Origin: a virus
IMG/VR virus record: IMGVR_UViG_3300032116_000040
Location: 1-58,084 of that record
DNA: 58,084 bases
Direction: 5' to 3' (one strand)
A program made the position numbers and the translations under genes. This document shows, one piece after another, positions 21,371 through 54,634 of the stretch. How positions within the stretch are numbered: position 1 is the first letter of the stretch; the number at the start of each line of letters is the position of its first letter. The notes below the pieces were generated by a model that was given only the letters and a program-made list of their open reading frames with translations, was not told where the DNA came from and did not search any database.

Positions 21371-22549
21371 TTATATTGTTTTCCAAGAGGTGTTCCTAAA
21401 CAAAAAGTCTAAGGACATTCTTTCAATTTTCATTAGAACGCTAGTTTCACCGTTTATTAGTTGCCCGCCTGATCCTTGAACTAAAATGCCTCGATTGCCC
21501 CAACTTATCCCTCCTACTTCGTCAGCAATAGTTATGATTTTTCCATTATCACTTGGCGATGCTCCTAGAGGTAGCGTGACTGTGCATATTCCTCCAGAGT
21601 AGGTCACTCCATAATATTCATAAGCGAAGCTAGCTGAATGAGTTGCTGTTGCAATGCTGGTAGTTCTGTATACTGGGTTTCCAGGAATAGCTATAACAGT
21701 TTCTCCAGCTACATCACTTGCAGTTACTCCCTCACCTACAAAGTTAATAATATTTCGTTGAGTTACTAGACTACCTTCGTCTTTAACTGTTGAATACGCT
21801 GGTTGAATTGGAACAGTCACAATAGTCTTTCCTACTCCTGCTGATGCTGTGACTCCTGCTCCTTGAAAGTCAAGAATATTCGTTTGTGCCAAATTACTTC
21901 CTTCTTCTTGAATTGTAGTATATGCTTGTTGAGTAGGAATACTCACTTGCGTTTCTCCAGCTACATCACTTGCAGTTACTCCTCCACCTATAAAGTTAAT
22001 AGTGCTTCGTTGAGTCACTGAACTGCCTTCATCTTTAACTGTTGAATAAGCTGGCTGAATTGGGATATTTACTTGAGTCTCTCCTCCAACATCACTAGCT
22101 GTGACTCCTGTGCCTGTAAATTTTAATACTGATCTTTGGGGTAAAATAGTACTCTCATCTTTTACTGTATTGTATGCCTGAATATCATGGTTGTCTACCT
22201 TAATCCATGCTCCACCTTCGAAAATAGCCCAGTCTCCTACTTGCCAATCAGTAACTCCATTAAGATTTGTTGTGCCTAGTACAGAAACTATATAAAAATC
22301 TCCGGCGGTACCCACACTACTTGTTAGGGTAGGAACGTTAATATCTGCATTCCATAATCCTTGATAATTAAGTCCAGTCAAGGACGGCAGTAACCCAGTT
22401 TCAATTATTGTAATAGTTCCAACATGGTCCATTTTACACAGCTTTCCGCCATTACTGCTATCGAATCCAATTAGGAAAGTTCCAATTGGAATTTTATCAT
22501 AATCCAATTGGGTAAAGTCTATTACTGGATACACGTGACTTACTGCCAT
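21371..22549 (-). CDS. Tail fibre protein with four tandem 42-residue repeats
   Basis: 392 residues. After an N-terminal domain (VYPVIDFTQLDYDKIPIGTF; GTAGDFYIVSV; WQVGDWAIFEGGAW) that resembles fibre attachment modules, residues 125-292 are four repeats of exactly 42 residues with the pattern AYxTVKDEGSxxxQRxxxxF then GxGVTASDVxGETxVxIP. The C-terminal domain (VTLPLGASPSDNGKIITIAD; FRNTSWKTI) is like phage fibre tips. A variant late element (GAATAAATATAC) is at 22569-22578. Probably a trimeric fibre whose length depends on repeat number. Confidence 0.8.
   Translation of the reverse strand: MAVSHVYPVIDFTQLDYDKIPIGTFLIGFDSSNGGKLCKMDHVGTITIIETGLLPSLTGLNYQGLWNADINVPTLTSSVGTAGDFYIVSVLGTTNLNGVTDWQVGDWAIFEGGAWIKVDNHDIQAYNTVKDESTILPQRSVLKFTGTGVTASDVGGETQVNIPIQPAYSTVKDEGSSVTQRSTINFIGGGVTASDVAGETQVSIPTQQAYTTIQEEGSNLAQTNILDFQGAGVTASAGVGKTIVTVPIQPAYSTVKDEGSLVTQRNIINFVGEGVTASDVAGETVIAIPGNPVYRTTSIATATHSASFAYEYYGVTYSGGICTVTLPLGASPSDNGKIITIADEVGGISWGNRGILVQGSGGQLINGETSVLMKIERMSLDFLFRNTSWKTI
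21674..22177 (-). repeat. Four tandem 126-nt (42-residue) repeats in the fibre gene
   Basis: Repeats start at residues 125, 167, 209 and 251 of the fibre protein, each with AY(S/N/T)T(V/I)...GVTAS. Copies 2 and 4 are the most alike; copy 3 is the most diverged (TIQEEGSNLAQTN). Confidence 0.85.
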
Positions 22550-23426: not shown

Positions 23427-24971
23427 TTATAAGTTACTTACACCAACTCCCTCTGCTAGTGAACCAGAATAATAGTAGGATTCTGGTTGGTATTCTAATA
23501 TTTCTACATACACACTAGAATCAGTTAAACCTGGTAATTCATTATAGTTATTTAAAGGTTCTATTGTTAATGCTCCGATAGCCGATATTGTTACTGGGAA
23601 GAAATCTATGTTAGTTTCTGCTGTAACAGCTCTTTTAATTATTAGATTTTTCTGAACTAATGTTGGTATAGAATTATCATAATCACTTACATCATATCCT
23701 GGGGTAAGTTTTATATGTGTTGGATACCAAGGTCTTGCTGTAGCCAATTTAGCTTCATAATAAACATTTGTACCATCAAGTTCAGATGACCAATAAACCG
23801 TTGCTCCTAATGAATTTTCTAAAACATCTGTGTAAATTATTTCAACAGTTTCTGGAAGATATGGTACAGGAATACTGCCGTTAAGATAAACGGTCCATGC
23901 ACCTTCTCCAGCATTACCTTTTGCCTCCCAAGTAGCAAATGATGAATCACCTCCAGGTAGTATTGAAGCATTAAATATAGGATCTGAATTATTATAAAGA
24001 GTTTCTCTTAAGTTTTGAGCTAACCAGATTTGAGTATCTATTTTAACTGTAACATATACAGTACCATCATTACCTGTATATGGATCAAGTGAACTGGTAT
24101 CTGAAGTATCTCCATCATTAAGAAGAAGTTCTCCAGCTGTTGCTTCTCTTACTAAACGTACTGACGCACCAGCTGTTTTTAGATTTGGATAACTACTTAA
24201 AGCAGAATTTGAACTAGCCATTGTATAATTAAATGCGCTGTCTGTACTGCTCACTGTACTACTCCACCAGAAACCGTTGCTACCTATGAAGTTGAAAGGT
24301 CCATTGTTGTTGCGGAAGCCCCCAGGCAAGCCTGAAAAATTATAATCATCAGTTCCTCCACCATTATTTAACCATCCGTAATATGCAGGAGGATTTCCTT
24401 TTAGGTTACTTTTTAATTTACCGCCTGCTACACTACTTCCACCTGCAAATGTTGCTAATGTATCCCAATCTGTATTACTAGGAACTCTCCATAGATTAGG
24501 TGCAACAAGTCCGGTGCCACCATCTGGATTAGCTAATCCTCTAGCATCATCTACTGCAAACCAGTTATAAAGATATCCGTAACCAGGCCAGTCTACATCA
24601 CCAGCAGTTAACTTAGCTCTATAAGCTTTGTATGGTATTTCTGGTTTTAATGTTATGAGTGAAAGATAAGGATTAGGATTCGTTACCGTAACCAAAGAGG
24701 ATGGACCAATTTCGATATTTGGAACATATTGCCCATTTACTCTAACTCCTGTTGTAATAAAAAGTTGGGATTCAGTAGGATTAAGTTGCGATCCACCAAT
24801 ATTGCTCCCCACAATATTTAAAAGTTCAGTTTGCGGCCCTGTAATTAGACTATTGTTAACTTTTATTTGAAGATTTTGCTGTGCTAAGCTTTCTAAATAT
24901 TCTAAGTTTTCGTCCATCTCTTGGATGGTAAGTTTTGATCCTTTTCCTTGTCGAGTAGTTAAATTAGGCAT
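23427..24971 (-). CDS. Tail adhesin with FISUMP / C-type-lectin-like domain
   Basis: 514 residues. The N-terminus (TTRQGKGSKLTIQEMDENLE) is like fibre attachment modules. Residues about 130-280 carry the FISUMP pattern: GYLYNWFAVDDARGL, LWRVPSNTDWDTLATFAGG, YNFSGLPGGFRN, NGFWWSST and GASVRLVRE. This domain has a C-type-lectin-like fold related to those used for receptor binding and to the variable proteins of diversity-generating retroelements. A second module starts near DTQIWLAQNLRET, a FISUMP-type opening. Likely receptor-binding protein. Late element at 24989-24998. No reverse transcriptase is seen in the window. Confidence 0.82.
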   Translation of the reverse strand: MPNLTTRQGKGSKLTIQEMDENLEYLESLAQQNLQIKVNNSLITGPQTELLNIVGSNIGGSQLNPTESQLFITTGVRVNGQYVPNIEIGPSSLVTVTNPNPYLSLITLKPEIPYKAYRAKLTAGDVDWPGYGYLYNWFAVDDARGLANPDGGTGLVAPNLWRVPSNTDWDTLATFAGGSSVAGGKLKSNLKGNPPAYYGWLNNGGGTDDYNFSGLPGGFRNNNGPFNFIGSNGFWWSSTVSSTDSAFNYTMASSNSALSSYPNLKTAGASVRLVREATAGELLLNDGDTSDTSSLDPYTGNDGTVYVTVKIDTQIWLAQNLRETLYNNSDPIFNASILPGGDSSFATWEAKGNAGEGAWTVYLNGSIPVPYLPETVEIIYTDVLENSLGATVYWSSELDGTNVYYEAKLATARPWYPTHIKLTPGYDVSDYDNSIPTLVQKNLIIKRAVTAETNIDFFPVTISAIGALTIEPLNNYNELPGLTDSSVYVEILEYQPESYYYSGSLAEGVGVSNL

Positions 24972-30740: not shown

Positions 30741-32327
30741 TTATATTTCGACATTTTTAGTCTTATCAATCTTTCCATACTGTCTAACATATCGATCCTT
30801 CGGTAAAAGTACATCCTTCTGCTCTTTGTAGTTAATGTAAACATTATTATCCTCTATCTTACTTACTGTTACTTGATCTTCTGCTTTATCAGTATCTCCG
30901 ACCTTAGTTTTCATGTCTTTTGCTAAGATAATTATTGCTTGCCCAGATTTAAGGTTATTATAGTCAATTTTATCTTTCACAAAAAGTCCAGTTTTATTTT
31001 TAGCTACAGAACCAGCATCCCATTTGATTTTATAAAGAATAAGAGTATTATTGCCTTTTTCAACAGTAACTTTTGCTCCTTGATATTGAGTCTTTGTGAT
31101 AGGCTGAGCTGCCTCACTCTTAGTTGCAATAGAGTAAGAAATGTTTTTTCCTCCTCCTGGCTCGTCCAATGATATTTTCCAAGATATTGCAATGTTAGTC
31201 GCATTTACGTGTCCTCCTAAGTATGCAGCTAGTGCGTTTCTAAATGTAACTCCTCGATCGTATGCTAATTTAGCGTTTTTATCGTAGTCGTCAACCACTG
31301 AAGCTGGTGCAGCCGTTCCAGAAGTAGGCTTTTTCTTAGCCGCATAATCCTCTAATTTAGAGGGGCCACCTTTACCAGAATTATATTCTGGGCTCGCTGA
31401 TGAAATTAAGGTCATTGAATCGGCAACTCCATTATCTCCTAAGTAACTGATTATTTTATCTCCAATCTCTTTTACTTTAGGATGGTTTGCATCAACCTTT
31501 AGTCCCTTATCATCAGTATCTGCGCTTAATGCGGTAAATGCGATCTCAGTCGTTCCAGTCTGTGCCTCTTTTCCTTGTGGAGTTTCAGTAGTAGTCGTAA
31601 CACTTCCGCCAGTAACGCTTGCTGATGCTGGACTAACTAACATCAGATATCCTGATTCTTTAACTGTTCCTCCTCCTGATCCAGTCAAATCTACGATATT
31701 GTCCTTATCCACTATTTTAGTTGGATCGTATTGTGTAAAATTACCGACTGCCCAATTAGTAAGGTTAAACATATTAATATATGCACATATTGCAGATAGT
31801 GATGAAGTTTTACGCTTATCGGTTTCTGTTACAGAATCTGAATTCACTTTTCCTATCGTATCAATTTTGTCAGCCGCTGCTCCATATAATTGAACCTTTG
31901 TACCTGGTTGTGAAGTTATATTAAACTTTTCTATTATACTATCTACTTTATTTGCAGAGTATTTACCGTCATTCTTTATAAGATCTTCATCTCCTGCATA
32001 TTGTGCTATTCCAACTAAAAGTGCACCGAATGCTTCCAGACGGTCAAGATTAGTATTTATTTTATTTACGTATGTTCCTAAAACACCATCACCTCCTCTT
32101 CCCACGTATAGAAGAGGTATCGCCTCACTCCCAATAGTTTTTGTCATTATTGAATACGCTTTATTGTGATCTTTTGCAGTAAACGTAATTCTAGGAAGAA
32201 AATTAAAAGGCTTCACCTTATCGCCAGTAGTAACTGCTTCTAGGCTTCCTACTTCAAATGCTTCGTTAAGAGATAGGGACTCATGTAAAGCTCTCCATCT
32301 ATTATAATTTAATAAATAACCACCCAT
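30741..32327 (-). CDS. Putative packaged virion protein with leader-like N-terminus
   Basis: 528 residues. The N-terminus RWRALHESLSLNEAFEVG contains L-N-E22 followed by Ala, a good match to the prohead-protease site L/I-x-E. Residues about 240-330 are Thr/Gly/Ala/Lys-rich linkers. A domain near residues 350-430 (KLAYDRGVTFRNALAAYLGG; NIAISWKISLDEPGGG) resembles OmpA/C-ring type helix-strand units only superficially. Own late element at 32346-32355. I suggest an internal or head-associated protein; no family recognised. Confidence 0.6.
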   Translation of the reverse strand: MGGYLLNYNRWRALHESLSLNEAFEVGSLEAVTTGDKVKPFNFLPRITFTAKDHNKAYSIMTKTIGSEAIPLLYVGRGGDGVLGTYVNKINTNLDRLEAFGALLVGIAQYAGDEDLIKNDGKYSANKVDSIIEKFNITSQPGTKVQLYGAAADKIDTIGKVNSDSVTETDKRKTSSLSAICAYINMFNLTNWAVGNFTQYDPTKIVDKDNIVDLTGSGGGTVKESGYLMLVSPASASVTGGSVTTTTETPQGKEAQTGTTEIAFTALSADTDDKGLKVDANHPKVKEIGDKIISYLGDNGVADSMTLISSASPEYNSGKGGPSKLEDYAAKKKPTSGTAAPASVVDDYDKNAKLAYDRGVTFRNALAAYLGGHVNATNIAISWKISLDEPGGGKNISYSIATKSEAAQPITKTQYQGAKVTVEKGNNTLILYKIKWDAGSVAKNKTGLFVKDKIDYNNLKSGQAIIILAKDMKTKVGDTDKAEDQVTVSKIEDNNVYINYKEQKDVLLPKDRYVRQYGKIDKTKNVEI

Positions 32328-40342: not shown

Positions 40343-41995
40343 TTATACTACGAATGATGTAGAACCTGTAAGAACTCCGATAGCAGCAGGATCGATATCC
40401 ATGCTTACGTATTGAGTTTCAGGATGCCATCCTGCTTCAGTAATCGCGTATCTTGATTTCATACCGATTTTTGGAGAGAATGTTCCTTCAGAGATAGTCT
40501 GAAGAGATTCAGCCATGATGTATGGCATGAATTTAACACCTGGTTCTTCGTCAGCTCCTTTACGACCGATAGCAAGTCTTGAATCTCCCCAAGACATGTT
40601 AGGGTCAACATAAACCTGTACACCATAAACTTTACCAGCTGGGTAAAGGTTACCTGCAACTCCACCCATATCAGTTGGAACTTGTGCGATTGAGTAACCA
40701 GCAACATCAGCCATTGCAGAAGCAATACGTCCGTTAGTTACTAAGAAAGTACCAGCTCCGAAACGTCCTCTGTGGTAGATTAAGTTAGCTAATTCAAGGA
40801 TTTTTGTAACCAATCTTCTTTGTAAAGTAGATGTGTTATCAAATCCACCAGCAGTCAAGTCAAGAGTAGTTACACCTAAACCTTCAACTAAGTTAACTTC
40901 AGCAGAGTGAACGTCAGCCAATTGAAGAACTCGGTCAACTAATCTTTTGTTGATTGATTGAGCTAAGTCATTAACCGCTACGTTTTCCAACATAGAGATA
41001 ACGTCATAATTCCAAACGCGGTTTAAGTCTTGGATTTGCTCAACTGTTGCAGAGATAGATACTTGATCAGTCTCAGCTTCAACGAATTTAGTGAACATTC
41101 TTAATCCCATTTGACGGAATTTAGAGTTTTCACCAGCCTCTCTCTTCATTGATCCTGGTACAGATCCTGTAGTAGGAAGGTAAGAACCATTGAAAGGAGT
41201 AGTAGCGTAATCAGCATCAGATACAGATGTGAAACCAGAAATGTGGTTTTCTAATGCAGAAACTAGAGATACTCCAGTAACAGGCGCAGTAGCTACATCA
41301 ACTCCGATTGTTATGGTCTGACCTGTGAATTCACCAGCTGGAGTGTTATCTCCAATAACTTGAGCGTCATCGATGATTTTGATGATAACTGTACCGTCAA
41401 CACGTGAGTATCCGACAAAGGTAGCTGTAATATCACCAGTAACACCACCAGTAACTGAGTCACCAGGAACATATGTACTTCCAGGGAAATTAGCAGAAGT
41501 CAATCCTTCTAATTTAACCATGTATGGATCAAACTCAGAACCAGATGTTCTACCGCCTGCATATAGATAATCCAAGTAAGGAAGGAATCCAACTGGAGAA
41601 TCCATAGGGATAACTGGAACTAGGTCGAAACCAATAGTTTTTGCTGCTACTTGAATAGCAACTGGAAGAAGAGATGGGAATTTATCACCAGATCCGTTTC
41701 CTGCAGCTGAGTAGCTGTTTTTTACACCACCTGAAAAAGGAGTACCACCGTTGATAGATGTTGGTGCTTGTGGGTTTCCCATAAAACCTCCAAGAGAACC
41801 TGGAGTTTGGAAAAATACACCTGGAGTAGATTGTTCGAAGATTGGTGTAGTGTTATCAAAGATCGCGTGGTTGTGAGCGTACTCAGCTAACCATGGAGTC
41901 TTAGCAACATCAGCACCGTAACCTTCTAAAATCGGCTGCCATGTGTTCGTTAAGCGATTGTCGCTTGAACGTCTGAAAATTTTAGTACGTGCCAT
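40343..41995 (-). CDS. 23: Major capsid protein gp23
   Basis: 550 residues (T4 gp23 521). HK97-fold shell protein. The N-terminal RLTNTWQPILEGYG matches the start of T4 gp23 (NKWKPLLEGEG). Conserved blocks follow: LFDLVPVIPMDSPVGFLPYLDY region, AGENSKFRQMGLRMFTKFVE, IQDLNRVWNYDVISMLENV and the C-terminal EGTFSPKIGMKSRYAIT. A possible prohead-protease site is I-F-E54. No late element lies directly before it, so it may be transcribed with the upstream protease gene. Confidence 0.95.
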   Translation of the reverse strand: MARTKIFRRSSDNRLTNTWQPILEGYGADVAKTPWLAEYAHNHAIFDNTTPIFEQSTPGVFFQTPGSLGGFMGNPQAPTSINGGTPFSGGVKNSYSAAGNGSGDKFPSLLPVAIQVAAKTIGFDLVPVIPMDSPVGFLPYLDYLYAGGRTSGSEFDPYMVKLEGLTSANFPGSTYVPGDSVTGGVTGDITATFVGYSRVDGTVIIKIIDDAQVIGDNTPAGEFTGQTITIGVDVATAPVTGVSLVSALENHISGFTSVSDADYATTPFNGSYLPTTGSVPGSMKREAGENSKFRQMGLRMFTKFVEAETDQVSISATVEQIQDLNRVWNYDVISMLENVAVNDLAQSINKRLVDRVLQLADVHSAEVNLVEGLGVTTLDLTAGGFDNTSTLQRRLVTKILELANLIYHRGRFGAGTFLVTNGRIASAMADVAGYSIAQVPTDMGGVAGNLYPAGKVYGVQVYVDPNMSWGDSRLAIGRKGADEEPGVKFMPYIMAESLQTISEGTFSPKIGMKSRYAITEAGWHPETQYVSMDIDPAAIGVLTGSTSFVV

Positions 41996-42021: not shown

Positions 42022-43998
42022 TTACAATCTAGAATTTGCGCTTCTTAGCATTGTTTCTAGGTAACCTTGAGAGTAACCTCTCTGCATCTCAACAACCTGA
42101 TTTACAGGTATTAGGCCTTCTGTACTTTGGCTTTCGTTGAGTTGTTGCGTTATTTTTGCGTTTCTTTTAGTTGATTCAATTCTTTCATTGATTCCTCTCA
42201 TATCAAGATCATCCCAAAATGCTTTAACTTGATAAGGAGTGTTTACCGTATAAAGTTGAGCTTTTGCGTGAACTTTGCTCTTTTCACTCTCATTCATTTC
42301 ATTCCATAGAACTTTATATTCTACTGGCATGAATCTGATATAAGTAGGAATGTTTTGCTCTTTATGATTAACTACTGCTTCCATGATTCCAACGATATCG
42401 TTTTCGTTAAACCATACAGATCCGTTTAGAGCTTCAACAATAGCTTGTTTAGTGTTTGCTTCTAAATTAAAGAATACTTTTTTGTTAGCTTCTCCCATAA
42501 CTTTTAAGAATGGATACTTATTTTCTAACACTGCTTTAGATGACTTGTCATTCACCTCAGTGATAACTTGATCAACTTTAGAGATTAATGAATCGATTGA
42601 GTTAGATTCGTTTAATTTAGAAACTCCACCAAGAATATTTCTCTTAGATACGATGTTTCCTTCTCCTAAAGATTCAGCGATGTATTCAGAGTATCCAATA
42701 GATTGACCTAATTTTTCAGCGATGTATTGAGAATAGTCTCGGTTTAAGTTGATGTTTTCTGCCAAATACTCACCAAATTCAATTGAACGATTTGCTCCTT
42801 CAGCAACGTATTCAACATACTGTAAACCTTTATCTAACTCTTCAGCTAAATAGTTTTGGTATTTAATAGAGTTGTTTACGTTTTCTTTAATGTACTCAGC
42901 ATAATTAATAGACTCGTTTAATTTTCCAGAAAGGTAATCTTGATAGTTAACTGACTGGTTTAATTTTTCTCCCAAATAAGAAGAATAATCAATTGAGTTA
43001 TTAACTGTCTCAGATACGTGCTCAGTATATCGAATAGATTCATTTAATTTGTGAGACATGTAATCTGCAAAATTAATTACTCCTTCTAAAGACTCCGCTA
43101 AATAGTTAACAAATCCAATTAGCTCAGAATTGCTAGCTCCATTAGTTGATTGAGAAGACTCAAGAATAGACTTATGATTTCTAAGTTCCTTTTTAATTCC
43201 ATTGAATTGTGTTTTAAGAACTTCTGAATATTTATCCATTTGATCTTTTGTTACAAACCCGTTCATTGTGTTGTTATTTTTTTGTTCTTGCAAAGTCCCT
43301 TGGAACTTAGTTCCTGAACTATTTTCTAATTTATTTATCTTATAGACTTTAAAATTATCTGCAAAGTTTAAACTTTCTGAAATATCCATTAGTCCAGACT
43401 TATGGATAAAAGAATTTTGTTTCATTGAATTATAACTCTCAGTAATCATAGAGAAGTCATTCTTTAGGGATTCGCTAACAGTTTTACGTAAAACTGCTTC
43501 AGTAAATCCAGGCTCTCCTACTAAATCATAAGTAAAGATTCTCTGTAACTTAACGTATCCGCTTTCGCTAACTTGACCTGCAGCTCTAGATGAAACTGAT
43601 AGCTGAACTCCTCCATCAAGTAAAGCTTTCGCTAATTTACCGTGTGGAGTGTTTTCTAACAATCTGACCTTAATATAAACCTTATCACCTCCGTCATAGT
43701 TAAGACCCTCAATGATGTGTGAAGCTTCACTTAACTTTGGCTCAAAATGCTGTGGATGATCTACTGTACCGACTAATTGTCTTTTTGAGATCTTTTCCTG
43801 TAAATAGGTAAGGTGTGGTAAGTATTCAGATTTTTCATAGACTCTTCGGTTATTATTCATCTGACCGAATACCGCACATACTCCTTCAAGTACTGCGCCG
43901 TTTGCTGATGATTCTCTAACTTGAAGTTTTTCACCAACGTTTTCAACGATTAGAACCCAATCGCTGTTGTTAATTTGTGCTGAATTTAGATTTGACAA
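42022..43998 (-). CDS. 21: Prohead protease gp21 fused to a repetitive scaffold (gp22-like)
   Basis: 658 residues; T4 has gp21 (212) and gp22 (269) as separate proteins. Residues about 35-180 are the prohead protease: GVCAVFGQ, the VDHPQHF His region, SVSSRAAG (Ser137 a good candidate) and FTYDLVGEPGFTEA. Residues 294-447 are eleven tandem 14-residue repeats (consensus IxYxxYLAExLxxS), nearly all with an L/I-x-E cleavage-like site. The C-terminal part (TPYQVKAFWDDLDM) resembles scaffold ends. The only start is TTG at 43998, preceded by an in-frame stop. Late element at 44016. Confidence 0.85.
   Translation of the reverse strand: MSNLNSAQINNSDWVLIVENVGEKLQVRESSANGAVLEGVCAVFGQMNNNRRVYEKSEYLPHLTYLQEKISKRQLVGTVDHPQHFEPKLSEASHIIEGLNYDGGDKVYIKVRLLENTPHGKLAKALLDGGVQLSVSSRAAGQVSESGYVKLQRIFTYDLVGEPGFTEAVLRKTVSESLKNDFSMITESYNSMKQNSFIHKSGLMDISESLNFADNFKVYKINKLENSSGTKFQGTLQEQKNNNTMNGFVTKDQMDKYSEVLKTQFNGIKKELRNHKSILESSQSTNGASNSELIGFVNYLAESLEGVINFADYMSHKLNESIRYTEHVSETVNNSIDYSSYLGEKLNQSVNYQDYLSGKLNESINYAEYIKENVNNSIKYQNYLAEELDKGLQYVEYVAEGANRSIEFGEYLAENINLNRDYSQYIAEKLGQSIGYSEYIAESLGEGNIVSKRNILGGVSKLNESNSIDSLISKVDQVITEVNDKSSKAVLENKYPFLKVMGEANKKVFFNLEANTKQAIVEALNGSVWFNENDIVGIMEAVVNHKEQNIPTYIRFMPVEYKVLWNEMNESEKSKVHAKAQLYTVNTPYQVKAFWDDLDMRGINERIESTKRNAKITQQLNESQSTEGLIPVNQVVEMQRGYSQGYLETMLRSANSRL
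42658..43119 (-). repeat. Eleven tandem 42-nt (14-residue) repeats in the scaffold domain
   Basis: Residues 294-447, exactly 11 x 14, for example INYAEYIKENVNNS, IKYQNYLAEELDKG, IEFGEYLAENINLN, IGYSEYIAESLGEG. Amphipathic helical, with Tyr at positions 3 and 6. Confidence 0.92.
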
Positions 43999-44015: not shown

Positions 44016-44025
44016 ATTATTTATT
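44016..44025 (-). promoter_or_regulatory. Putative late promoter AATAAATAAT
   Basis: On the (-) strand AATAAATAAT lies 18 nt before the TTG start at 43998. An inverted repeat AAGCCC / GGGCTT flanks it. Confidence 0.55.
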
Positions 44026-44044: not shown

Positions 44045-45073
44045 TTAAGTTTTATTTTCGCAATTTGATAATATTGATTTTAATTTTATAAAATCTTCTT
44101 CTGGAATATCCTCAATTTGAGGCAGGACGACATTAAATTTTACTAAATACTCTCCTAAGTTACCCTGCTCGTCGATTATTCCCTCATTAGGTATCGAGAA
44201 CTTTAGATTAGAAGCAGATTTTGGGTTATTAAAATCCACCTCGTATTTTTTATCAACTAGCGTTTTAATCTTGGTTTTTTCTCCATTAAAGAGAACGCTT
44301 TTTAGCGGAAGGTCGACCGTTTGAACTATTTTATTTCCCTCGATCGTAATATTTTCTGGAAAAACAAGTTCAAGCACAACATGAAGGTCTCCAATTATCG
44401 GAACCTGGTCTATTTCTCCCCATATGTTGAGCTGGCTCACGACGTCCTCGTTTCCAAGCTTAGGCACTCTTGCCGAAACTGAGTACGAACCTCCCTCCTT
44501 TTTAATTATGATGTATTTTTTTCTAAGATCGATCGTTATGAATATTTCTTTTTCCTCAGTGACCTTATTAAAGGTTAAAGCATTTCCGGATTTTCCCGTA
44601 TAGTTTATTTTTTCTCTAGAAAAGCTAAGCTCTATTTTTTTTCCGAGCATTGCCTCACTTAGTTCCAATTTATCGCGAACATATATGTTAAGGTGATCAG
44701 CACTAGGTGCAGGATTGTGAGTCTTGCCTTGTGTTTTTCTAGATCGTTCAGATGACCTTTTTCTAAAGTCCGGATCCGAAAAGTTTCTAATAAAATCGTC
44801 AAATCCAAATCCTCCAGAAGCAGAATCATCCGTTGACCAGCTAAATTTAGTCTCACCGGCAGACCGGTTAAACGTTACCCTATCGTATTTTCCTCTCTTT
44901 TCATCATCGCTAAGCACCGCGTATGAATCTGAGATCTTTTTAAACATCTCTTCAGATTCCTTGTCTCCTCCATTCTTATCTGGATGATATTTTACTGCAA
45001 GCTTCTTATATGCTTTCTTAATCTCTTCTTTTGTTGCATTTTTTGCAACACCTAGGACAGAATAGTGATCCAT
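44045..45073 (-). CDS. DnaJ-like co-chaperone without a zinc domain
   Basis: 342 residues. J domain at residues 1-65 with HPD at 30-32 ([15 protein letters not shown]), then a Gly/Ser/Phe region ([12 protein letters not shown]) and a C-terminal beta domain with [12 protein letters not shown], like CbpA/DnaJ type B. No CxxCxGxG repeats. It would stimulate host DnaK. Next to the protease-scaffold fusion and gp23, it may assist head assembly, while a GroES-like gene lies at 5294. Confidence 0.88.
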
Positions 45074-52693: not shown

Positions 52694-54634
52694 TTAGTCT
52701 CTACTTTTCAAAAAATCGTTAAAGCTAGTTACCTTTTTTACTAGCTTTTTCTTTTTACTCTTTTTGCCTGGTCCAGCTAGAGATAGCGTATCCATGTTGT
52801 CTGCAGGCAGAGTTCCTGGGGTCTGAAATGCTGCTCCTGGGGAAACCGCATCTTCATTTGTCTTTTTCTCAGCCGATTTATAGAATTTTGGACCCTCTCC
52901 TTTTTCGTAAGGCGTGAGACCAAGTGCATCAAGTCTTAATTTATTGGTGACACTGCTTACGCCTTTTTCAAGATCTCGACCTCCCTGCTTGCTTACTGCG
53001 TATACTCCTCCCTTGATTATGCTAAATATCCCGTTAAAGATTGCTCTGTTCTGATCGGCATTTTTTCTAGCGACAGCCGCATCTCCTCTATCTGGAATGG
53101 TGGAAAAGAGTCCTACTACTATCTGGCCCAGTCCTTTAAGAAGATTCTTTAGTGGGCTCTCAGCGATCCTATCTGCTTCGCTAACTGCTAATCTTATTCT
53201 TTGATAAAGAGGCAGACGAAGGTCTGGTTTTAACTGAATACCTTTAAAGTTCTTCATGTTAAAGTCCTTGGACAAGTAATAGTTTTTAATCTCTTTCTCC
53301 TTTTCTTGGGTGATGGATTTTATCTTAGCGATAGCGTTATCAGTGTCTCGCTTCGATAGCTCACCATCCACTTCGCTCTCAATGTATTTAATTATCCATG
53401 AACTACTGATCTGTAGGTATGCTAGCTGGTTTTCCTCAAGAGCGCTCTCTGCGGTTCTGGCAGAAGTGTTAAACTGTGAGATCCTGACCGAATCCACTAG
53501 TACTTCTCGAATGGCCGCTTCTAGCCAGGCAGCATTTTGAGATTCTAAACTTTTAAATAGCTTATAGTAGTCTCCTCCGGGCTCAGCGATCTCGCCGTTT
53601 GTCATTGGAGGAAGAAGAGCTAAGCTTAGTGCGCTCATCAGCTTTTCCTTAATCCTATTCTTTTTTCTTAGACTTGGTCTCTCGGTCTTAACCGTCTCCT
53701 TCTCTTTATTCTTGATTGGTTCTGCGAAAAATTTAGAATATCCTAGAGCATCTATGAGAGGCTTCCAGTCTACTTCCAATTTTTCTCTACCCGTCTCAGT
53801 ATTGGGAATGTCTGCGATCACGTTTTTAATATCGTTTAGCGAGTTAGCTACCTCTTTCTTAATTGCATCTTCGGTTCTTTGTAAAAGCTTAGCAACCTTC
53901 TTTTTATAAGATTCGCTAGCGATTGTACGTGCCTTTTCAGCAATATCCGGATTCTTTTCTAGTATATCCTTAAGCTCCTCCTTTTTTACTATCTTGCTCT
54001 CTCCATTTGAATCTATCGTTTCAAACTCATTTGATTCAACCTTATTATCGACCATTCCAATCTTTCCGATCTTTATGGTTGGTGCTCCTTCCTCACTTGA
54101 AGTGATAAGGGAGGAGTCTAAGCTTTTTAGAGCAAGAAGAATGCTGGTGTCCTTGTCCAAGTCCGGAGACTCGTTTGCTGCATAGCTAAAGATAAGGTGC
54201 ATCTTATAGATCCTACTCTTAACGTCAGCTTCACGTATTAAAAATCTTTTATAGCTGTCAAAGTTTTGATTTGGGTCGATCTTCTTCTTGTCTGAATTAA
54301 GAGCACTTAGGCTCTTTCTTGATCGGGTCAAGTATTCACCCAACCATTCAACTTTTCCTGGAGAGACCATTGCGAGCAGAATCTTCTGTAGTTCTGGGTT
54401 AGATTTTACCTTTTCTAGAAGAAGAACGTCCAGTTTTTGTAAAACCTGTTCAATGGATTCAAATGAAGTTGTTCTTGCGATCTTGTCGGTCGTTTCTCCA
54501 CCTATTCCCGAATTAATGATATTCGTTAACTCATCGAACTCTGAGCCTTTTTTATCATCCTTGGTATCAGCTGCCTCATTGACTACTGATTGCTGTAGGT
54601 TCAGCCAATTTCGTAAGTATGCTTCAAAACTCAT
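52694..54634 (-). CDS. Large putative packaged virion protein with leader-like N-terminus
   Basis: 646 residues, mostly helical and charged. The N-terminus MSFEAYLRNWLNLQQSVVNE followed by AADT has a leader-like form with a V-N-E20 site. The body has long helices (RTEDAIKKEVANSLNDIKNV; GQIVVGLFSTIPDRGDAAVA) and the C-terminus is Lys-rich, ending KKVTSFNDFLKSRD, whose SFNDFL echoes the leader motif. Not recognised. Own late element at 54653-54662. Candidate internal head or tail-lumen protein. Confidence 0.6.
   Translation of the reverse strand: MSFEAYLRNWLNLQQSVVNEAADTKDDKKGSEFDELTNIINSGIGGETTDKIARTTSFESIEQVLQKLDVLLLEKVKSNPELQKILLAMVSPGKVEWLGEYLTRSRKSLSALNSDKKKIDPNQNFDSYKRFLIREADVKSRIYKMHLIFSYAANESPDLDKDTSILLALKSLDSSLITSSEEGAPTIKIGKIGMVDNKVESNEFETIDSNGESKIVKKEELKDILEKNPDIAEKARTIASESYKKKVAKLLQRTEDAIKKEVANSLNDIKNVIADIPNTETGREKLEVDWKPLIDALGYSKFFAEPIKNKEKETVKTERPSLRKKNRIKEKLMSALSLALLPPMTNGEIAEPGGDYYKLFKSLESQNAAWLEAAIREVLVDSVRISQFNTSARTAESALEENQLAYLQISSSWIIKYIESEVDGELSKRDTDNAIAKIKSITQEKEKEIKNYYLSKDFNMKNFKGIQLKPDLRLPLYQRIRLAVSEADRIAESPLKNLLKGLGQIVVGLFSTIPDRGDAAVARKNADQNRAIFNGIFSIIKGGVYAVSKQGGRDLEKGVSSVTNKLRLDALGLTPYEKGEGPKFYKSAEKKTNEDAVSPGAAFQTPGTLPADNMDTLSLAGPGKKSKKKKLVKKVTSFNDFLKSRD

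What the first reader, a model, noticed from the sequence alone, without database searches (positions are those of the whole stretch)
42022..43998. Prohead protease fused to a scaffold of eleven perfect 14-residue repeats, nearly all with a protease-type site
T4-type phages encode the prohead protease (gp21) and the scaffold (gp22) separately. Here one 658-residue chain holds the protease (HP near residue 81, SVSSRA near 134-139) and then exactly 11 x 14 residues (294-447) of amphipathic repeat. Most repeats contain an L/I-x-E sequence (YLAE, YIAE, KLNE, YLGE), the known type of T4 prohead protease site; repeats 3 and 8 have V instead. Inference: the scaffold is a cis substrate that is chopped into near-identical short peptides during maturation, and scaffold length, hence possibly head size, could change by repeat gain or loss. 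I do not know of a described T4-like phage with this arrangement.
Basis: partly seen in the sequence, partly recalled or inferred. Interest (0 to 1): 0.85.

Follow-up and report, generated by a model that had tools for sequence, protein, structure and literature searches.

The report
Phage protease gene with nested scaffold
In a branch of large T4-related bacteriophages the enzyme that matures the virus head and the temporary scaffold it digests are one protein, and a start signal hidden inside the gene appears to make extra scaffold alone, the same trick herpesviruses use with UL26 and UL26.5.

Summary
The 658-residue ORF is real: a T4 gp21-type (S77) prohead protease, a 154-residue helical array of eleven 14-residue repeats (register exact, sequences similar but not identical), and a conserved C-terminal domain, directly 5' of the gp23-type capsid gene. 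It is not an assembly error: 194 complete homologous ORFs (90 after dereplication) are all fused, and no gp22 homologue was found in whole genomes of its huge relatives. Fusion is also in Lak phages, Tenacibaculum phage pT24 and Listeria phage LIS04, so it is an old state of a T4-related branch, apparently undescribed in the papers searched.

Met245, just before the scaffold, is invariant, and a copy of the phage's own promoter motif (GATAAATAA) lies 73 nt upstream, at the most strongly conserved synonymous block of the gene. This mirrors herpesvirus UL26/UL26.5 and lambda C/Nu3.

'Chopped into 14-mers' is only partly supported: site density equals ordinary gp22, predicted fragments are 4-28 residues, and the best conserved sites flank the domains. 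Head-size tuning by repeat number is not supported: 11 repeats is near-constant in this clade. No experiment exists.

The parts
42022..43998 (-). Fused prohead protease-scaffold gene, 658 aa, TTG start
   Evidence: intact in 194 complete homologous ORFs
44017..44025 (-). Upstream promoter-type motif AATAAATAA (P1, low-level full-length product; inferred)
   Evidence: ATAAATAA upstream of the protease start in 44/44 clade members
43483..43953 (-). Protease domain (about residues 16-172), S77 / T4 gp21 type; presumed catalytic His81 and Ser137
43468..43479 (-). Conserved VSE|S (174-177) directly after the protease domain: candidate release site (others: ITE|S 185-188, ISE|S 206-209)
   Evidence: [LIV]xE|S kept in 95-100% of 22 orthologues; LNE/INE/VNE|S at the same place in huge phages and Lak
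43331..43339 (-). Internal promoter motif GATAAATAA (P2), in frame in codons for K-I-N-K
   Evidence: Motif is the most enriched 8-mer upstream of this phage's genes; 16/155 upstreams vs 5 in 110 kb of coding sense strand; lowest synonymous diversity of the gene
43276..43284 (-). A-rich element CAAAAAAAT, 10-18 nt 5' of the internal ATG, conserved at nucleotide level
   Evidence: Codons 239-241: 0 synonymous differences seen, 165 expected in 20 sequences
43264..43266 (-). Internal start codon, Met245, of the nested scaffold
   Evidence: Met present in 90/90 dereplicated homologues just 5' of the F-V-T motif with a variable spacer
42022..43266 (-). Nested in-frame scaffold gene, 414 aa (predicted second product)
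   Evidence: Inference
42658..43119 (-). Eleven 14-residue repeats (residues 294-447), predicted long helix at 3.5 residues per turn
42604..42615 (-). Conserved LNE|S (462-465) at the 3' edge of the repeat array, candidate cleavage site
   Evidence: 95% of 22 orthologues
42199..42546 (-). Conserved C-terminal domain (about residues 485-600), shared with huge phages, Lak and pT24
   Evidence: hhalign E 4e-46, 3e-5 and 5e-5; alignment A4
42025..42141 (-). Conserved LNE|S (620-623) and the 36-residue C-terminal tail behind it; compared here with the herpesvirus M-site and its capsid-binding tail
   Evidence: LNES in 100% of orthologues; the comparison is inference
40343..41995 (-). Major capsid protein, gp23 type, 550 aa, next gene downstream
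   Evidence: Pfam Gp23 E 1e-33; conserved PIFE/PLFE/PVFE near residue 53 as likely propeptide site
44045..45073 (-). DnaJ-type co-chaperone gene directly upstream
   Evidence: at the same place in 30/30 clade loci

Best explanation
This is the head-assembly protease-scaffold gene of a large T4-related phage, probably of Bacteroidota. One reading frame gives two products. A low-level full-length chain (protease-linker-repeat helix-C-terminal domain) is carried into the prohead core by its own scaffold part. A second product, scaffold alone from Met245, is made in excess from an internal promoter and start codon, which also feed the capsid gene behind it. After shell assembly the protease cuts itself free at [LIV]xE|S sites in the linker, cuts near the C terminus to let the scaffold go, and digests the scaffold, repeats included, so that DNA can enter. 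Shown by sequence: the fusion, its conservation, the protease family, the repeats, the invariant Met, the internal promoter motif and the synonymous constraint. Inferred: promoter activity, use of Met245, product ratio, each cleavage, and that the C-terminal domain binds the capsid protein.
For: Protease: Pfam S77 and phrog_207, Foldseek top hits T4 gp21 5jbl, then herpesvirus proteases. Scaffold role: directly 5' of gp23-type MCP (mostly 17-30 nt gap), helical, no gp22 homologue elsewhere in whole genomes of relatives. Nested product: Met in 90/90 dereplicated homologues at the protease-scaffold junction, spacer to the FVT motif variable, next residue small (A29 S5 T4 G3 of 44), as at true N termini. 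Promoter: GATAAATAA is enriched upstream of genes at about 1.7 per kb against 0.05 per kb in coding sense strand; the internal copy scores among the best 4 of 107,488 coding positions; ATAAATAA kept in 21/21 orthologues against 1.7 expected from synonymous shuffles, and in two of them shifted by 9 nt with changed amino acids. Lowest synonymous diversity of the whole gene falls on it (O/E 0.22, 44 sequences), and independently just 5' of the same Met in the huge-phage clade (O/E 0.34, 36 sequences). The protease gene has its own ATAAATAA motif in 44/44 but the MCP only in 5/43, so most would need the internal one. It resembles the T4 late promoter TATAAATA (PMC1524935).
Against: No RNA or protein data. 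The motif is 73 nt from the ATG, whereas other genes have it at about 25-30 nt. In the huge-phage clade the constrained block does not match that clade's own upstream motif, so its nature is unknown there. Met245 could be conserved for structure. Related sequences are not independent, so the shuffle counts overstate significance. Homology of the scaffold part to gp22 was not found. The repeat array is predicted at low confidence. The C-terminal domain model could not be obtained.
Confidence: 0.72

Rival explanations
1. Single-product fusion: only the full-length chain is made, protease and scaffold are 1:1, and the scaffold is simply a cis substrate chopped at each repeat. The internal motif serves the downstream capsid gene only.
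For: Fusion is fixed; [LI]xE or VxE in nearly every repeat; the MCP mostly lacks its own ATAAATAA motif.
Against: Does not explain the invariant Met with start-like context and A-rich nucleotide constraint right before it. T4 uses several times less protease than scaffold (copy numbers in PMC5694885 and PMC9958956).
Confidence: 0.18
2. The repeats are retained as a structural ruler or a virion component rather than digested; only the flanking linker sites are cut, and LxE inside the repeats is a by-product of the helical repeat sequence. (Not exclusive of the nested-gene model.)
For: Best conserved [LIV]xE|S sites flank the array (174, 185, 206, 278, 462, 620); inside repeats the residue after Glu is often K, N or E; E-x-L is as enriched as L-x-E; repeat number is nearly constant.
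Against: T4 scaffold is digested to small pieces and true gp22 proteins carry the same density of sites (PMC9958956); nothing shows the array survives.
Confidence: 0.3
3. Protease alone is released by a ribosomal -1 frameshift at A-AAA-AAT (codons 239-241), which gives an immediate TAA.
For: A7 run and TAA are present in the window sequence.
Against: 16 of 44 clade members lack the A7 slippery run (CAA AAT AAT instead) and the -1 stop follows from any Asn-Asn pair read AAT AAx.
Confidence: 0.04
4. Assembly or reading error joining two genes.
For: None.
Against: Same intact frame in 194 complete ORFs from independent metagenomes and in deposited genomes.
Confidence: 0.01

Closest known systems
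T4 gp21 (S77 prohead protease) with separate gp22 scaffold
   Same: Protease fold and family, position before the gp23-type capsid gene, [LI]xE-type sites, helical scaffold of similar site density
   Different: Two genes in T4; here one chain with 14-residue repeats, a different C-terminal domain, and no detectable gp22 homology
Herpesvirus UL26 / UL26.5 (assemblin and assembly protein)
   Same: In-frame overlapping genes with identical 3' ends, protease in the unique 5' part, scaffold made alone from an internal start with its own promoter; sites between protease and scaffold and about 37 residues from the C terminus (PMC4498786)
   Different: Different peptidase family (Ser-His-His S21), although weakly similar fold; cut sites A|S or A|T not E|S; no sequence homology of the scaffold; internal promoter here is only predicted
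Lambda gpC / Nu3
   Same: Scaffold is the in-frame C-terminal part of the protease gene with an internal start (own knowledge; C-Nu3 interaction in PMC3224144)
   Different: Lambda C is a ClpP-type S49 peptidase (own knowledge); capsid and scaffold are unrelated; no internal promoter known to me
phrog_207 long 'head maturation proteases' (pT24 BAV39266, Listeria phage LIS04, Lak phages)
   Same: Same fused plan; pT24 and Lak share the C-terminal domain
   Different: No 14-residue repeats: helical in LIS04, acidic disordered-looking middle in Lak; an internal start was not demonstrated there

Membership tests
Peptidase S77 (T4 gp21 prohead protease) | Family profile above curated cut-off | tested here: met
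   PF03420 38.9 bits, cut-off 27
Peptidase S77 (T4 gp21 prohead protease) | Conserved His and Ser of the active site | tested here: met
   H81 and S136/S137 invariant in 20 orthologues; S137 aligns with the Ser of T4 'ASRG' (in the solved T4 chain the position of H81 is Ala)
Peptidase S77 (T4 gp21 prohead protease) | Cleaves after L/I-x-E | not testable with these tools
   Only site conservation seen
T4 gp22 scaffold (phrog_237) | Sequence homology to gp22 | tested here: not met
   hhalign E 0.2 and 0.095, probability under 1%; no phrog_237 match in G000
T4 gp22 scaffold (phrog_237) | Helical core protein encoded between protease and gp23 | tested here: met
   Position and predicted helices, low confidence
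Nested protease/scaffold gene of the UL26/UL26.5 kind (works like) | Scaffold ORF in frame inside the protease gene with conserved internal Met | tested here: met
   90/90 homologues
Nested protease/scaffold gene of the UL26/UL26.5 kind (works like) | Own internal promoter | tested here: inconclusive
   Motif and synonymous constraint present in the window clade; activity untested; no motif match in the huge-phage clade
Nested protease/scaffold gene of the UL26/UL26.5 kind (works like) | Release site and C-terminal maturation site cut by the protease | not testable with these tools
   Conserved [LIV]xE|S at both places
Herpesvirus assemblin family S21 | S21 sequence family | tested here: not met
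   No S21 match in Pfam; only weak fold similarity, E 0.02 or worse

The most novel reading that the evidence does not exclude
A T4-lineage head gene is a nested pair, fused protease-scaffold plus scaffold alone from an internal late promoter and start, matching herpesvirus UL26/UL26.5 in gene logic and in having release and C-terminal maturation sites; this would make the nested arrangement either ancestral to, or repeatedly evolved in, the tailed phage-herpesvirus lineage.
Probability: 0.6. Interest if true: 0.75.

Novelty: new variant of a known kind. Interest (0 to 1): 0.62.

Why it matters
[quoted passage not shown] here is a concrete candidate, fused to the protease, in huge phages up to 735 kb. 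If the nested start is real, T4-type phages, lambda-type phages and herpesviruses all set the protease:scaffold ratio by the same gene logic with different peptidases, which bears on how head assembly evolved. It also gives a simple rule for annotation: 'head maturation protease' genes of 550-800 codons in this branch should be examined as two products.

Tried and rejected
Assembly error: rejected, intact in 194 ORFs. gp22 homology by profile comparison: not found; the phrog_3378 match spans 14 residues and is chance. -1 frameshift: slippery run not conserved. Repeat number as head-size control: near-constant. T4 consensus TATAAATA itself: no excess in the window (6 seen, 7 expected), so the phage's own motif was derived instead. 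Promoter match in the huge-phage clade: none. Internal start in LIS04: Met192 has no clear Shine-Dalgarno. One origin of the fusion: the tree puts PAU (unfused) inside and LIS04 (fused) outside the main fused clade, both on long branches, so gain/loss history is open.

Full report
Observation. The ORF at 42022-43998 (-) is 658 aa with a TTG start; relatives have TTG or ATG at about the same place. Residues 33-146 are a Pfam S77 prohead protease, 16-365 match phrog_207. The 11 x 14 repeat at 294-447 is exact in spacing but not in sequence. The next gene downstream is a gp23-type capsid protein.

The fusion is real and fixed. tblastn found the same long chain in metagenomic phages of 462-735 kb (LR756500-504, LR745206), and IMG/VR scans brought the set to 220 loci; the 196 complete ORFs comprise 194 fused relatives of 584-811 aa plus LIS04 (560 aa, fused) and Sphingomonas phage PAU (254 aa, unfused). 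Lak phages carry a 586-595 aa chain when TAG is read as Gln. pT24 has a 527 aa chain. Unfused gp21 plus a separate scaffold or unnamed gene are seen in Acj61, C48C1, Ackermannviridae, GAP32, PA5oct and others. The protease tree gives one large fused clade (Lak, huge phages, the window's clade, pT24, with PAU inside) and LIS04 apart, so at least two changes. No phrog_237 (gp22) match exists in the whole genomes of the huge phages, Lak, pT24 or LIS04, while three gp22-bearing controls ring; the window's own record is only a 125 kb fragment.

Domain anatomy. Protease domain (about 16-172), linker with three conserved [LIV]xE|S sites, Met245, helix 251-284, repeat helix 291-445, linker with LNE|S at 462, C-terminal domain 485-600, and LNE|S at 620 followed by a 36-residue conserved tail. 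Foldseek of the low-confidence model (mean pLDDT 52) gives T4 gp21 5jbl first, then herpesvirus proteases with weak E-values. The repeats have a hydrophobic period of 3.495 residues per turn, i.e. four turns per 14 residues, as in left-handed coiled coils. The C-terminal domain is shared with the huge-phage clade (E 4e-46 for the whole scaffold part) and, less surely, with pT24 and Lak (E 5e-5 and 3e-5). It has no detectable gp22 homology.

The nested scaffold gene. In the window protein Met245 follows QKNNNT and precedes NGFVTKDQM. A Met stands just 5' of this F-V-T motif in 90 of 90 dereplicated homologues, while the spacer to the motif varies from 1 to about 20 residues and the following residue is small in 41 of 44 window-clade members. 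Right before it the codons CAA AAA AAT show 0 synonymous differences where 165 were expected. Upstream of genes in this phage the strongest motif is [GA]ATAAATAA, mostly 25-30 nt before the ATG; it resembles T4 late promoters (TATAAATA, with A or T at the first position in relatives; PMC1524935). GATAAATAA occurs at 43339-43331, inside the protease-scaffold linker, 73 nt before the Met245 codon. ATAAATAA is kept in 21/21 orthologues against 1.7 expected from synonymous shuffles; in L029 and L030 the amino acids changed and the motif reappears 9 nt downstream. Over 44 sequences the lowest synonymous diversity of the gene is at this motif (O/E 0.22); in 36 sequences of the huge-phage clade the lowest value is again just 5' of the internal Met (O/E 0.34), though the element there does not match that clade's upstream motif TTTAATATATA. 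The protease gene has its own ATAAATAA motif in 44/44 and the capsid gene in only 5/43, with 17-30 nt between scaffold and capsid genes in most. The simplest reading is P1: protease-scaffold-capsid at low level; P2: scaffold-capsid at high level.

Cleavage. T4 gp21 cuts after L/I-x-E and degrades its scaffold to small pieces (PMC9026906, PMC9958956). In the window chain [LI]xE is enriched threefold after the protease domain, but E-x-[LI] equally so within repeats. Separate gp22-type proteins have 4.7-6.6 sites per 100 aa, no more than composition predicts; the window scaffold has 4.1 overall and 6.5 in the repeats. Complete digestion would give fragments of 4-28 residues there. Val at P3 is likely tolerated, since the conserved capsid site reads IFE, LFE or VFE and the site after the protease VSE, LNE or INE; this is inference.

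Repeat number. 11 in 40 of 45 window-clade representatives (contigs up to 271 kb), 12-15 in the huge-phage clade, 6-12 degenerate units in the third clade. Repeats keep individual identities between orthologues, so they are not freely gained or lost.

Comparison with the known. In alphaherpesviruses UL26 and UL26.5 are in-frame overlapping genes with the same 3' end; the protease occupies the unique 5' part, UL26.5 starts shortly after the release site, and a C-terminal site about 37 residues from the end frees the scaffold from the capsid protein (PMC4498786, which also cites the paper showing that the promoter and coding sequence of the UL26.5 proteins lie within UL26). Lambda C/Nu3 is the phage analogue (own knowledge). 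The present gene works like these if Met245 and P2 are used; it is not a member of either peptidase family. The papers I could search say nothing of a fused protease-scaffold in T4-type phages; one states that no gp22 counterpart was confirmed in any giant phage (PMC5694885). The library lacks most subscription journals, so priority is not proven.

Host and lineage. The clade resembles the 'moraphages' (200-307 kbp, aquatic, T4- and Lak-related, Bacteroidota hosts, DnaJ; PMC12619734), an inference from genome size, relatives and the DnaJ gene next door. That paper lists a 'Prohead core protein protease' without remark on its length.

Noticed in passing
window 44045-45073 (-): A DnaJ + DnaJ_C co-chaperone gene sits directly 5' of the protease-scaffold gene in 30/30 window-clade loci; it may recruit host Hsp70 for head assembly.
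   Followed up: partly
window about 42100-42160 (codons about 614-633): Second-lowest synonymous diversity block of the gene (O/E 0.25), about 105-165 nt 5' of the capsid start codon, with no known motif.
   Followed up: no
L002 codons 175-191 and relatives: Huge-phage clade keeps AACTTTAGGATATATGAAATGTCCGATGAG at nucleotide level just 5' of the internal Met; not that clade's upstream motif.
   Followed up: partly
LR756501.1:11386-11787 (-) and LR756500.1:154951-155127 (-): Second weak S77 protease matches in two huge phage genomes.
   Followed up: no
L007, L240, L241 (Lak phages): Fused protease-scaffold chain of 586-595 aa that only reads through with TAG as a sense codon; acidic middle in place of the repeats.
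   Followed up: partly
window 21711-22109: Tandem array of 126-bp units, 3.2 copies, within ORF 21371-22549 (-).
   Followed up: no
window, upstream of many genes (e.g. those at 52697-54634, 30744-32327, 23430-24971): Promoter-type motif ttaAaATAAATAAtaAA about 25-30 nt before start codons, a T4-late-like element of this phage group.
   Followed up: yes
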